In this document: piece after piece, positions 6,069 through 59,150 of the stretch
Position numbering within the stretch: position 1 is the stretch's first letter
Layout of the letters: each line of letters starts with the position of its first letter
From: Sphingobium subterraneum
Lineage (GTDB): Bacteria > Pseudomonadota > Alphaproteobacteria > Sphingomonadales > Sphingomonadaceae
Direction: 5' to 3'
DNA: 64,000 bases
Assembly: GCF_014199435.1 (NCBI RefSeq)
Contig: NZ_JACIJP010000004.1
Span: 62,001 to 126,000, forward strand
Position numbers and translations under genes: made by a program
The notes under the pieces: model-generated
The model's input: only the letters and a program-made list of their open reading frames with translations
Databases searched by the model: none
What the model was told of the DNA's origin: nothing

Positions 6069-6722
6069 CACGGCGCCTTTCCACGCCCAGAAGGTCCGGC
6101 AGGGTGGGATGTTGAGCCAGTTCGTCTCTTCGTCGATGCGCGTGAAATGCGGCTGAAGCAGGCGGCGGACGAAGCCCGAATACTGATAGACCAGAAACGC
6201 TCCACCGGGGCGCAGCGCCGCGTGGGTTGCCTGCGCGATCGAAGGCCCAACGCCATCGGGCAGGGTGGAAAAGGGCAGTCCGGAGAGGATATAGTCGGCG
6301 TGCTCCTCTCCCTGCGCCCGTATGATCGTCTCGACGTCGATGGCGGAGCCATGGACGACGCGCAGCCGATGATCGAGGATGTTCGCCTTGAGATGCGCGA
6401 CGAAATGCGGGCTGGTGTCGATCGCGATCAGCATCGCGTCGCCGGGCAAGTGCTTCAATATCTCACGCGTGAAGGTACCGACACCCGGACCATATTCGAC
6501 AAACAGCCGGGTGCGCGACCAGTCGACGGGGCGCAGCATCGCATCGACAACGCCGCCGGCCGTCGGGATGATCGACCCGACCATGGCCGGAGCGCGCAGA
6601 AATTCCCGGAAGAACGCCGCTGCCTCGCGGAGGGGGCGGGGAACGAAGGATTGGCCTGTCACCGCGAGAGTGGGCTGCACCCGATAAGTATCGCGGGCTG
6701 TCATATTGTCACGGCTTTTCAT
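5979..6722 (-). CDS. SAM-dependent methyltransferase, phospholipid N-methyltransferase (PmtA)-like
   Basis: The product has 247 residues. The glycine-rich SAM motif VEYGPGVGTFTREIL and the LSGLPFSTLP segment match the small family of bacterial phospholipid N-methyltransferases related to rRNA adenine dimethylases. Such enzymes methylate phosphatidylethanolamine toward phosphatidylcholine at the inner membrane. ATG at 6722 (MKSRDNM) is preceded by AAGAG; ATG at 6704 is an alternative. The last 30 codons lie antisense to the end of the cardiolipin synthase-like gene. The substrate is inferred from family and neighbour; a general methyltransferase role cannot be excluded. Confidence 0.72.
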   Translation of the reverse strand: MKSRDNMTARDTYRVQPTLAVTGQSFVPRPLREAAAFFREFLRAPAMVGSIIPTAGGVVDAMLRPVDWSRTRLFVEYGPGVGTFTREILKHLPGDAMLIAIDTSPHFVAHLKANILDHRLRVVHGSAIDVETIIRAQGEEHADYILSGLPFSTLPDGVGPSIAQATHAALRPGGAFLVYQYSGFVRRLLQPHFTRIDEETNWLNIPPCRTFWAWKGAVSVPPGGAEVEAPGHGVVEHRDEKIADPAF

Positions 6723-6865
6723 GCATCGCTCTTGTTTGGTCCGGGCCGAAAGAGCGAAACACGCTCCCGCATCCGGTAACGAACGTAGCGGGAAGTTTAT
6801 CCCCGCGAAAGAGGATGCGGGATAAAGTGTCGACCGCGCGCGGCGAAACGGCCAAGGCACGGGCA

Positions 6866-17978: not shown

Positions 17979-18065
17979 CGTTCGGGCTGAGCCTGTCGAA
18001 GCCCAGTTTTCACTTTTTGTACTCATGCAGGAAGAACGGCCCTTCGACAAGCTCAGGGCGAACGG
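17979..18065. repeat. family-A inverted repeat pair between ruvC and ruvA
   Basis: The left arm has GGGCTGAGCCTGTCGAAG and the right arm CTTCGACAAGCTCAGGGC, separated by about 33 nt. The arms are inverted copies and the RNA could form a long stem-loop. Confidence 0.85.
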
Positions 18066-18071
18066 AAACTT

Positions 18072-18563
18072 TTATGTTGTGCTCATTCGCCGCGCGCTGG
18101 CCATATGGTGCGCATGGGTGATCGCGACAGCCAGCGCGTCGGCGGCGTCCGGCCCGGCAATGGTCACGCCGGGCAGCAGGCGTGTGACCATGGCATGCAC
18201 CTGATCCTTGCTGGCGTTGCCGACGCCGACGACCGATTTCTTGACCAGCCGCGCGGCATATTCGCCGACCTCGATGCCCGTCCGCGCCGCGCCGAGCAGC
18301 ACGACGCCGCGGGCCTGGCCGAGCTTCAGCGTCGATTGGGGGTTGGCGTTGACGAACACTTCTTCCACCGCCGCGGCATCGGGCTTGTAAAGCAACAGCA
18401 GGTCGGTCAGCGCCGCATCGAGCGCCAGCAGCCGCGCGGGAAGGGGAGCCTTGGCGTCAGTTTTGATCTGTCCGTTGGCGATGTGCGACAGGCGGTTGCC
18501 CTGCGCCGAGATGACGCCCCAGCCGGTCGTGCCAAGGCCGGGATCGAGGCCGAGGATCAGCAT
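18072..18563 (-). CDS. ruvC: Holliday junction resolvase RuvC
   Basis: The 163-residue RNase H-fold endonuclease has [13 protein letters not shown] with the first catalytic Asp, [22 protein letters not shown], and the late acidic cluster [14 protein letters not shown]. It cleaves Holliday junctions symmetrically. Its ATG abuts the stop codon of the small repeat gene directly upstream (TAGATG) and no purine-rich ribosome site is visible. Translation probably depends on termination of the upstream gene. Confidence 0.96.
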
Positions 18564-18788
18564 CTACTGAAAAAGAACCGTTGCTCCATCACCAGCACCA
18601 GTGGCTATCGATCGCATCTCGGTAGCAGAAAATTTGGCAGAATTCGACACAATCAGGTGCCCACCATTATTCAAGCCCGTGGCTATCGACCGTAATTCTG
18701 TAGCACTAAACCTTGACCCATTTACGTGTAGGCTACCACCGCCTGTCGCCACCGAACGCAGCTCAAGGGCAGTAAGATGCTCTATCAT
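18564..18788 (-). CDS. small repeat protein of unknown function between yebC and ruvC
   Basis: The 74-residue product is built from three copies of an [11 protein letters not shown] unit ([11 protein letters not shown] near residue 6, [11 protein letters not shown] at 28, [11 protein letters not shown] at 54), spaced 22 and 26 residues apart. Each is followed by a short hydrophobic strand-like segment (SLHV, HLIV, TVLF). There is no signal peptide or membrane segment. The ATG overlaps the yebC stop as ATGA, with GGAG 8 nt upstream inside yebC, and the stop abuts the ruvC start. By hand count the gene is about 50% G+C, well below its neighbours. I do not recognise the family; an alpha/beta solenoid is suggested by the pattern. 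Confidence 0.7.
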
Positions 18789-19528
18789 GCTATTTTCTCC
18801 ATGATCTCGTCGGACACTTCATAATTGCCCCACACGGTCTGGACGTCGTCATCTTCTTCCAGCGTGTCGATCAGCTTGAGCAGGGTCGCGGCGTTGGCCT
18901 CGTCGACGTCGACCGTGGTCTGCGGTTTCCACGCCAGCTTGGCGCTGTCCGCCGGACCGAGCGAGGCTTCGAGCGCCTTCGATACTTCATGGAGCGCGTC
19001 CATCGCCGTCCAGATCTCGTGCTCGTCCTCGTTCGACGACACGTCCTCCGCGCCCGCTTCCAGCGCCGCCTCGAAAATCGCGTCGGGATCGCCCGCCTTC
19101 GCCGGATAGGTGATCAGGCCCATGCGGTCGAACCCATGGCTCACCGCGCCGCTCGCGCCCAGATTGCCGCCGTTCTTGCTGAACGCCGTGCGGACGTTGG
19201 TAGCGGTGCGGTTGCGGTTGTCGGTCAGCGCCTCGACGATGACGGCGACGCCGCCGGGGCCATAGCCCTCATAGCGCACTTCTTCATAGTTCTCGCCGTC
19301 GCCCTTGGTCGCCTTGTCGATCGCGCGCTGGATGTTGTCCTTGGGCATCGACTGCGCCTTAGCCGCGTTGACGGCAAGCCGCAGGCGCGGGTTCATGTCC
19401 GGATCGGCCATGCCCATCTTCGCCGCGACGGTGATTTCGCGGCTCAGCTTGGAGAACATGGCAGAGCGCTTCTTGTCCTGCGCGCCCTTGCGATGCATGA
19501 TGTTCTTGAATTTGCTATGGCCGGCCAC
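18785..19528 (-). CDS. yebC: YebC/PmpR-type (TACO1) regulator
   Basis: The 247-residue product starts [20 protein letters not shown], the hallmark of the YebC/TACO1 family, and contains [20 protein letters not shown]. Family members act as transcription regulators or aid translation of difficult peptide sequences. The classical yebC-ruvCAB order is kept, but with the small repeat gene wedged between yebC and ruvC. Confidence 0.96.
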
Positions 19529-19609
19529 GGCCTGCTCCCTGTTGTTGGATCGGATCTGCGCGCTGTCTAGCGATGCCGCGCCAAGGTGGCAAGCGGGCGA
19601 GGGGCTGCG

Positions 19610-20743
19610 CTACAACTCCCCGAGTATCTCCGCCAGTGTCGCCATGCAGTCGCGCCCCAGTTGCATGGACCGCGCCGGGGACCACCCGAAATCCGCGTCG
19701 GGCAGGTCATCATGGTCCTTGAACGGCATTTCCAGCGTCATGCTGACCGCGCCGAAACGCTCGGCGAGCTGCGCAGTGGACATAGACAGGTTGGCACGAC
19801 CCGGCTGGCCGATGGGATAGCCCTGGCGGGTCTGGAAATCGGGCGTCCGCGCCGCCAACAGATCGCGGTAGCGGTTGTAGAGCGCCAGCCGGTCCTGCTT
19901 CAGCGAAGGAATGCCTTCGAATCCTGCAATGAACACGGCCGGTATCGCCTCGTCGCCGTGCACGTCCATCGCGAAATCGACGCCGGTCTCGTCCATCGCC
20001 GCGCGCACATGGAATACCTCCGGGCTGCGTTCGAGCGAGGGATCATGCCATTCGCGGTTGAGGTTGACGCCAACCGCATTGGTGCGCAGATGTCCGCGAC
20101 GGCTACCGTCGGGGTTCATGTTGGGCACGATACGGAACGTTGCCTTTTGACGCAGGAGCCGAGCGACGCTGTCTTCCACGTCGCACAGCCGGTCGAGCGC
20201 GCCTTCGATCCACCATTCCGCCATCGTCTCGCCCGGATGCTGGCGGGCATAGAGCCACACCTGCTTGGGTCCTTCGCCGAGCGTCAGCAGGTCGATCGGC
20301 TGTCCGTCGAGCGTCGTCCCCAGCTCACGCGCCGTAACGCCCGGCTGGCTGGCCGCCCAGGCAATCAGGTCGTGATGCCGTTCCATCGAATAGGGTGCGA
20401 AATACGCGACCCAGACGGCATTGCTATCCGGCGCAAGGCGGATCGTCAGCCGCCCGTCGGCGTAGTCGGTCTCGGCCATCCACCAGGTTTCGCGGTCCTC
20501 GCTGACCCGCGCTTGATAGTTCTTCCACCCGTCCGGATAGGCTGATCCGCCGCAATTGGTGATAACCAGCTCGACCTCAGCCCCCGCGGCGCCTGCCACG
20601 CGGAAATGGAACCACTGGTAAAAATCGCTCTGAAGGTCGGGCACGATTTCCAGCTCGGCCCGAAAGCCCGTCTGCGCATTGCCGCTTGTGGAAAGGACGC
20701 GGATATTGCCCGCGTCAAAGGCGCTCGTAATCGATAAGGTCAT
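19610..20743 (-). CDS. M14-family zinc carboxypeptidase, cytosolic carboxypeptidase (CCP)-like
   Basis: The 377-residue product has an N-terminal beta domain (about 1-125) typical of cytosolic carboxypeptidases, then a peptidase M14 domain. Zinc ligands are visible as HPGET (about 169) and, later, the His of DVHGDE; NLNREW provides substrate-binding residues and LEMPFKD the catalytic glutamate region. No signal peptide is seen. The start overlaps the stop of the upstream lipoprotein gene as ATGA. Eukaryotic relatives trim glutamate tails from tubulin; the bacterial substrate is not known. Confidence 0.85.
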
Positions 20744-55714: not shown

Positions 55715-55794
55715 CCCGTTCGGGCTGAGCCTGACGAAGCCCTGTACTTTCTGACACGAGAAGTGCAGCCCTTCGACAAGCTCAGGGCGAACGG
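55715..55794. repeat. family-A inverted repeat pair between rsfS and rlmH
   Basis: Left arm GGGCTGAGCCTGACGAAG, right arm CTTCGACAAGCTCAGGGC. It ends 17 nt before the rlmH start, within the operon leader. Confidence 0.85.
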
Positions 55795-57481: not shown

Positions 57482-57562
57482 CCCGTTCGGGCTGAGCTTG
57501 TCGAAGCCTCGTATTTTTCTTCAAAGTAAGTGCAACCCTTCGACAGGCTCAGGGCGAACGGG
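57482..57562. repeat. family-A inverted repeat pair between envC-like and ctpA
   Basis: Left arm GGGCTGAGCTTGTCGAAG, right arm CTTCGACAGGCTCAGGGC. It lies about 100 nt before the ctpA start. Confidence 0.85.
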
Positions 57563-59072: not shown

Positions 59073-59150
59073 CCGTTCGCCCTGAGCCCGTCGAAGGGCC
59101 GTACTGTTCTTTAGGAAGGACTCGGCTTCGACAAGCTCAGCCCGAACGGG
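59073..59150. repeat. family-A inverted repeat pair between ctpA and rlmN
   Basis: Left arm CCCTGAGCCCGTCGAAGGGC, right arm GGCTTCGACAAGCTCAGCCC, inverted relative to the copy at 57482. It lies between convergent genes. Confidence 0.85.

What the first reader, a model, noticed from the sequence alone, without database searches (positions are those of the whole stretch)
18564..18788. Undescribed three-repeat protein wedged between yebC and ruvC
A 74-aa protein of [11 protein letters not shown] repeats alternating with hydrophobic strands sits in the otherwise conserved yebC-ruvC junction. It is about 50% G+C among GC-rich neighbours, so probably acquired, yet it is fused into the translation chain by ATGA and TAGATG junctions. 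The repeat looks like an alpha/beta solenoid. Linkage to Holliday-junction genes is suggestive.
Basis: partly seen in the sequence, partly recalled or inferred. Interest (0 to 1): 0.75.

Follow-up and report, generated by a model that had tools for sequence, protein, structure and literature searches.

The report
Mobile three-repeat mini-protein beside ruvC
A 74-residue protein made of three near-identical repeats sits between two housekeeping genes, and it belongs to an apparently undescribed family that turns up in integron cassettes, plasmids and phages; its job is unknown, but its three repeats seem to be kept alike by selection.

Summary
The ORF is real, on the minus strand (18564-18788): 74 aa with three [15 protein letters not shown] helices, overlapping yebC by ATGA and abutting ruvC by TAGATG. 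It is very likely coding: a profile of 24 homologues that leaves it out finds it at E=1.7e-9, and 15 of 23 identical residue pairs between its repeats use different codons. It matches only an unnamed cluster (phrog_27431). I found 26 distinct homologues: in integron cassettes (Stenotrophomonas, Endozoicomonas, Rheinheimera clear; an Acidobacteria MAG probable), phage contigs, plasmids, and fused behind a DnaD-type domain on small Klebsiella/Enterobacter plasmids. None lies near ruv genes in the DNA held, so the Holliday-junction link is not supported; nor is the yebC-ruvC junction conserved. Within each protein the helices match (78%) far better than between proteins (49%), with synonymous sites near saturation: selection, not recent duplication. 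Best reading: a mobile alpha/beta mini-solenoid that binds a partner through three equal helices, here settled between yebC and ruvC without attC.

The parts
18564..18788 (-). 74-aa three-repeat ORF (ATG at 18788-18786, stop TAG at 18566-18564)
   Evidence: family profile without this protein E=1.7e-9
18741..18776 (-). repeat helix 1, [12 protein letters not shown]
   Evidence: amphipathic helix pattern in the family alignment
18675..18710 (-). repeat helix 2, [12 protein letters not shown]
18597..18632 (-). repeat helix 3, [12 protein letters not shown]
18720..18734 (-). predicted strand 1 (SLHVN); predicted strands 2 (HLIVS, 18645-18659) and 3 (TVLF, 18570-18581) follow the other helices
   Evidence: strand-type periodicity in the family alignment; inference
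18797..18800 (-). Shine-Dalgarno-like GGAG of the ORF, inside the 3' end of yebC
   Evidence: duplex -6.4 kcal/mol
18785..18788 (-). ATGA overlap of yebC stop and ORF start; yebC ends MEKIA here but KLG in 29 of 29 relatives read, so the last yebC codons appear replaced at the insert boundary
18785..19528 (-). yebC (TACO1/YebC family), upstream neighbour
   Evidence: Pfam
18072..18563 (-). ruvC, downstream neighbour, starting directly after the ORF stop and with a weak ribosome site of its own
   Evidence: Pfam

Best explanation
SHOWN: the ORF is a divergent member of an unnamed family (phrog_27431) of small proteins with three repeats, carried in integron gene cassettes, phage contigs and plasmids. 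In the window it is a single low-G+C gene between yebC and ruvC, without attC. INFERRED: it folds as a small open alpha/beta solenoid of leucine-rich-repeat-like build, whose three helices sit side by side and present the same side chains three times. It acts as a binding module: the three matched helices dock on one partner that is itself repeated or threefold, or stack as a self-matched ladder that sets the shape of one binding face. The helix sequence differs from protein to protein because targets differ. Such a portable binder would serve the carrying element or host as an inhibitor or adaptor; fused behind a DnaD-type winged helix it would add a docking arm to a DNA-binding protein. In the window the gene is probably translated from a ribosome site inside yebC, and its translation is probably needed for efficient ruvC translation (termination-reinitiation at TAGATG). 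My confidence is about 0.95 for coding and family membership, 0.6 for the alpha/beta solenoid, 0.35 for the three-equal-helix binder, and 0.5 for coupling to ruvC. The score below is for the whole chain.
For: Profile of 24 homologues without the window protein: 33.5 bits, E=1.7e-9 among 1136 window frames, next frame E=0.093; best of 1000 scrambles 10.2 bits. Some of those homologues were first reached by searches seeded with the window protein. In the whole genome the family profile that includes it finds it alone at E up to 1e-4. Homologues of like length and register. Cassettes: one in an array of 15 attC-type repeats with one on each side (L070); a two-gene cassette between attC-like sites (L067); a two-repeat form in an attC-like array (L075); attC-like site 4 nt past the stop (L069). 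Integron integrase over the cut-off in 4 of 9 of the bacterial genomes. Matched helices: 22 proteins, identity 0.781 within against 0.490 between proteins, 0 of 10000 permutations reach it; 345 of 564 identical residue pairs use different codons, 0.61 against 0.69 expected at random. Helix periodicity in the three helix segments and strand periodicity in the three strand segments. Fusion to DnaD_N (E=8.8e-16); a related plasmid has that DnaD_N protein without the repeats. ruvC ribosome site -2.4 kcal/mol, weaker than in 23 of the 24 relatives whose start was located out of 29.
Against: No structure, expression or binding data; structure prediction failed and was then switched off. The best solved-structure matches are not significant and disagree: a leucine-rich-repeat protein at E=0.023 with one profile, TAL-effector repeats at E=0.009 with a larger one. 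The usual leucine-rich-repeat motif is missing. One homologue (L050) also matches a phage tail-fibre profile at E=6.3e-5 and the window protein a beta-rich autotransporter-stalk model at E=0.0069, below its cut-off: not explained. Matched helices could reflect packing between neighbouring helices and have nothing to do with a target. The window copy has no attC, so its route here is unknown. One relative (L093) has an even weaker ruvC site, so weakness alone does not prove coupling.
Confidence: 0.4

Rival explanations
1. Nucleic-acid-binding repeat: the three helices contact DNA or RNA in register, as TAL-effector-like repeats do.
For: The larger profile's best solved-structure matches are TAL-effector repeats, sharing a half repeat of the type T-x-E-Q-V-V-x-I-A (E=0.009, made of many domains none significant alone). 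Fusion to a DNA-binding winged-helix domain.
Against: Helix spacing is 21-31 residues in 22 proteins (22 and 26 in the window), not 33-35 (recalled). The positions that line up with the base-reading pair hold small residues, mostly A-G in repeats 1 and 3 and A-A in repeat 2, while the variation lies in the helix. The second half is strand-like, not a second helix. A smaller profile did not list TAL effectors.
Confidence: 0.15
2. Self-assembly: the identical repeats let copies stack end to end, so the protein forms a filament or ring and the matched helices are an assembly interface.
For: Repeats 1, 2 and 3 are interchangeable in sequence (between-protein identity 0.490 at the same position, 0.483 at other positions), as an interface that treats all repeats alike would need.
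Against: 24 of 26 homologues found have three whole repeats (L075 has two, L071 is cut at its start), so repeat number is fixed. The C-terminal strand segment differs from the internal ones, which looks like a cap.
Confidence: 0.2
3. Half of a toxin-antitoxin pair or an anti-defence factor carried by mobile elements.
For: Integron, phage and plasmid setting; the fused form lies next to mazEF on small plasmids. The fused protein has a weak PADLOC match to DpdK, E=8.8e-4, over its linker.
Against: 24 of 26 homologues are separate genes with no constant partner among the neighbours looked at; no PADLOC family matches the four stand-alone proteins tested at E up to 0.1; mazEF also stands next to the DnaD_N protein that lacks the repeats.
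Confidence: 0.2
4. It works with RuvABC or YebC at Holliday junctions or in translation.
For: Position and compact junctions in the window only.
Against: No yebC, ruvA, ruvB or ruvC match in the DNA held around 27 homologue loci; no accepted match to the gene in 60, 395 and 295 other related genomes, all of whose 80 same-genus members searched for it do have ruvC.
Confidence: 0.03
5. Non-coding insertion debris that only looks like a protein.
For: Low G+C and unusual third-position use for this genome.
Against: Homologues of like length and register in distant bacteria; synonymous differences between repeats.
Confidence: 0.02

Closest known systems
phrog_27431 (PHROGs v4, unknown function, 75 positions)
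   Same: Full-length match of the window protein (1-71 to 1-73, E=3.3e-4) and of the four homologues tested (E from 4.2e-14 to 1.6e-3).
   Different: The cluster has no name or function; the window member is a divergent one (16-28% identical to the 14 other rows of alignment A8).
Integron gene cassettes of unknown function
   Same: Several homologues are small genes between attC-type sites.
   Different: The window copy has no attC and its genome has no integron integrase over the family cut-off.
Leucine-rich repeats (ribonuclease-inhibitor or Legionella type)
   Same: One helix and one short strand per repeat of 21-31 residues; best match of the smaller profile is 3goz, E=0.023.
   Different: No LxxLxLxxN motif (motif recalled); no Pfam leucine-rich-repeat match up to E=10 for the window protein; only three repeats.
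TAL-effector-type repeats
   Same: First half-repeat resembles theirs (E=0.009).
   Different: Shorter repeat, no variable base-reading pair, strand instead of second helix.
DnaD_N proteins of small enterobacterial plasmids
   Same: On pKPN7-type plasmids the three-repeat module is fused behind DnaD_N.
   Different: The module is an addition: a DnaD_N protein of a Klebsiella oxytoca plasmid, 68% identical over 127 residues, ends without it.

Membership tests
phrog_27431 family | full-length profile match | tested here: met
   (E=3.3e-4, residues 1-71); own profile without the window protein E=1.7e-9
phrog_27431 family | three repeats, about 70-75 aa, stand-alone gene | tested here: met
   window 74 aa, three repeats; 20 of 24 stand-alone homologues are 70-75 aa
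phrog_27431 family | helix sequence matched among the three repeats of one protein | tested here: met
   window 0.70 identity among its repeats against 0.49 between proteins
integron gene cassette | attC site just after the gene | tested here: not met
   window none; met in homologues L070, L075, L069, and at the end of a two-gene cassette in L067
integron gene cassette | integron integrase in the same genome | tested here: not met
   own genome: 7 matches, none over the cut-off
leucine-rich repeat proteins | LxxLxLxxN motif (recalled) | tested here: not met
   by inspection; no Pfam leucine-rich-repeat family up to E=10
leucine-rich repeat proteins | solenoid with a parallel strand face | not testable with these tools
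   structure prediction failed and was switched off; periodicity only
TAL-effector-like repeats | 33-35-residue two-helix repeat with variable residues 12 and 13 (recalled) | tested here: not met
   helix spacing 22 and 26 in the window, 21-31 in 22 proteins; small residues at those positions
RuvABC accessory | recurrent neighbourhood with ruv genes | tested here: not met
   0 of 27 homologue loci in the DNA held

The most novel reading that the evidence does not exclude
A new class of mobile binder in which three helices of one small solenoid must stay identical to each other while the shared sequence is free to change from protein to protein: a self-matched triple that recognises a threefold or repeated target, with each cassette specifying a different target.
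Probability: 0.2. Interest if true: 0.75.

Novelty: new variant of a known kind. Interest (0 to 1): 0.5.

Why it matters
It joins an orphan ORF to an apparently undescribed family that spans integrons, plasmids and phage contigs of Pseudomonadota and an Acidobacteria MAG, and it shows an unusual constraint: three repeats held alike by selection within each protein while differing between proteins. Many integron cassettes have no known function (general knowledge), so a family small enough to express, crystallise and mutate is a tractable entry point. In the window it also shows a cassette-type gene settled without attC beside housekeeping genes, where ruvC translation may now depend on it.

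Tried and rejected
Searches with the window protein alone gave no convincing relative in 60 relatives, 395 other genomes of the order, plasmids or viral contigs; the one phage hit (E=0.2) proved real later. The best plasmid hit lies antisense to yecA; the Streptomyces hit (E=3) was dropped on its E-value; the other four records were not opened. Weak hits: my first look (and L052) read several loci on the wrong strand, because loci of the genome search are not turned to the match. I therefore repeated it: 48 loci held, 3296 frames in six frames, best E=0.018, against 5.7e-9 or better for five true members. Weak hits for which no locus was held were not checked. The Pantoea tail-protein hit failed the same test. 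The match of one homologue to a tail-fibre profile (E=6.3e-5) was not pursued.

Rfam gave nothing for the five cassette loci. My first two attC scans missed the obvious L070 sites because the inner-stem rule was too strict; the relaxed scan found 4 of 26 homologues (L066 only weakly) against 7 of 661 control stops of frames of 100 codons or more. L071 was judged attC-like by eye only. L074, whose genome has an integrase, showed none.

Holliday-junction function, non-coding debris and recent repeat duplication were rejected for the reasons in the report. A literature search for five motif strings and the cluster name found no paper; other searches were seen as listings only and no paper was opened. 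This covers only the open papers held.

Full report
What is there. The ORF at 18564-18788 lies on the minus strand and reads as a 74-residue protein, MIEH...VLFQ, with three copies of a helix of the type [12 protein letters not shown], each followed by a short strand-like segment. Its start overlaps the yebC stop as ATGA and its stop touches the ruvC start as TAGATG. The internal repetition is beyond chance, and its G+C (50.2%) and third-position G+C (0.44) are far below those of its neighbours. A simple consensus scan of 18400-19700 finds no promoter or terminator.

The junction. ruvC was found in all 81 same-genus genomes examined, the window's own among them; 30 of those loci were held and read. 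In the 29 relatives yebC ends KLG and the distance to ruvC runs from about -4 to 354 bp. Some relatives carry other small ORFs there: a type of 73-87 aa (L077, L094, L096, L101, degraded in L080) and a 116-aa membrane type (L098, L099); one of each was tested and matches no Pfam family. So the junction is variable and the window's insert is one of several occupants. In the window yebC ends MEKIA, so the left boundary of the insert lies within the last yebC codons. The searches of 60, 395 and 295 other related genomes gave no accepted match to the gene.

Family. For the window protein Pfam gives only weak matches below its cut-offs (best AIDA, E=0.0069), NCBIfam nothing, PDB nothing. PHROGs gives a full-length match to an unnamed cluster, phrog_27431. 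A weak tblastn hit proved to be a 72-aa three-repeat protein in a faecal contig recorded as 'Bacteriophage sp.'. The identical L050 and L073 are counted once. In all there are 26 distinct homologues: 24 stand-alone, of which one (L071) is truncated at its start and one (L075) has two repeats, and two fused. Of the 24, 20 are 70-75 aa; the others are 46 (L075), 64 (L071), 82 (L065) and 96 aa (L114). A profile of 24 homologues without the window protein recognises it at E=1.7e-9. The family is rare: 1 of 369 gammaproteobacterial genomes at E up to 1e-5 and 1 of 296 in the window's order at E up to 1e-4, both being genomes already known to have it.

Carriers. In Stenotrophomonas sp. MMGLT7 the gene (L070:2125-2349) is a cassette inside an array with 15 attC-type repeats. 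In Endozoicomonas it is in a two-gene cassette between attC-like sites at L067:5831-5889 and 6720-6775. In Rheinheimera hassiensis a two-repeat form sits in an attC-like array. In an Acidobacteria MAG an attC-like site starts 4 nt past the stop. In Chromobacterium amazonense an attC-like stretch follows by eye, and a transposase gene lies just upstream. By a fixed rule, 4 of 26 homologues have an attC-like site within 40 nt of the stop (L066 weakly) against 7 of 661 control stops; the window has none. Integron integrase over the cut-off occurs in 4 of 9 of these bacterial genomes (L067, L070, L074, L075) and not in the window's genome. In phage contigs the neighbours of five were named: it lies next to a terminase gene in L060, L061 and L117, about 1.6 kb from a portal gene in L118, and between a methyltransferase and a Q-like antiterminator gene in L115; it is on the strand opposite to each of these named genes, as self-contained accessory phage genes often are (recalled). 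In L060 the other neighbour is on the same strand. That phages can carry attC sites is stated in the abstract of PMC9892861 (start of the abstract seen in the search listing only).

Fusion. On pKPN7 and relatives the three repeats follow a DnaD_N winged-helix domain. A DnaD_N protein 68% identical over 127 residues ends without the repeats on a Klebsiella oxytoca plasmid that also has a mazEF-type pair next to it. The module is therefore portable.

The constraint. For 22 proteins (the window's and 21 homologues; left out were L075 with two repeats, L071 truncated, L024 whose first unit starts at the initiator, and the near-copies L056 and L063) the 11-residue helix units are 78% identical within a protein and 49% between proteins; none of 10000 permutations reaches this. 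Units were placed by a motif search and by hand. Most columns that vary between proteins are kept alike inside a protein. Yet 345 of 564 identical residue pairs use different codons, 0.61 against 0.69 expected for random codon choice; in the window, 15 of 23. Recent duplication or gene conversion would leave identical codons. So selection appears to couple the three helices. I infer either stacking of neighbouring helices in a solenoid or binding of an equal target three times.

Fold. The family alignment shows helix periodicity in each helix segment and strand periodicity in each following segment. Solved-structure profile searches gave a leucine-rich-repeat protein at E=0.023 and, with more sequences, TAL-effector repeats at E=0.009 summed over many weak domains. 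Neither is significant, and they disagree; I use them as leads only. Repeat length, the small residues at the would-be base-reading positions, and the strand segment speak against TAL-type repeats; the missing motif speaks against filing it as a leucine-rich repeat. One homologue also matches a tail-fibre profile (phrog_5454, E=6.3e-5), which I cannot explain.

Function in the window. The ORF has a fair ribosome site inside yebC (-6.4 kcal/mol), while ruvC has a weak one (-2.4), weaker than 23 of the 24 relatives whose start was located out of 29. I infer that ruvC translation partly depends on ribosomes that finish the ORF. A role in Holliday-junction processing has no support: none of 27 homologue loci holds a yebC or ruv match in the DNA at hand (L067 is mostly masked).

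Verdict. The thing is a divergent member of an unnamed, mobile family of three-repeat mini-proteins with unknown target. Interest is moderate: no function is shown, but the matched-helix constraint and the spread over integrons, phages and plasmids are unusual and testable.

Noticed in passing
L077, L080, L094, L096, L101 (yebC-ruvC junction of same-genus relatives): A different small ORF of 73-87 aa (...LDVGVWFNEASGHIHIAA...RYHPNLY...) occupies the yebC-ruvC gap in several relatives, degraded in L080; the one tested has no Pfam match.
   Followed up: partly
L098, L099: A 116-aa membrane-type ORF fills the same gap in two other relatives; no Pfam match for the one tested.
   Followed up: partly
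window 17980-18063, 55771-55792, 57485-57559, 59075-59147: Seven copies of a CTTCGACAAGCTCAGGGCGAAC-type repeat with up to 3 mismatches, six of them in inverted pairs, one pair between ruvC and ruvA; none expected by chance.
   Followed up: partly
L071:4910-6198: In Chromobacterium amazonense a DDE transposase gene lies just upstream and the homologue lacks its first residues, as if cut by the insertion.
   Followed up: no
L063 and L064 (contig IMGVR_UViG_2888767948_000004): Two copies of the same three-repeat gene about 7.5 kb apart on one 20.6-kb contig.
   Followed up: no
L118:649-918: A small tyrosine- and glycine-rich repeat ORF (YYMSGGYIYG...) lies about 3 kb from the homologue on the phage contig.
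   Followed up: no
L067:6281-6715: Second gene of the Endozoicomonas cassette, about 144 aa, without a Pfam match.
   Followed up: no
L050:1483-1701: This homologue also matches positions 706-764 of a phage tail-fibre profile (phrog_5454, E=6.3e-5); related repeats may sit in tail fibres.
   Followed up: no
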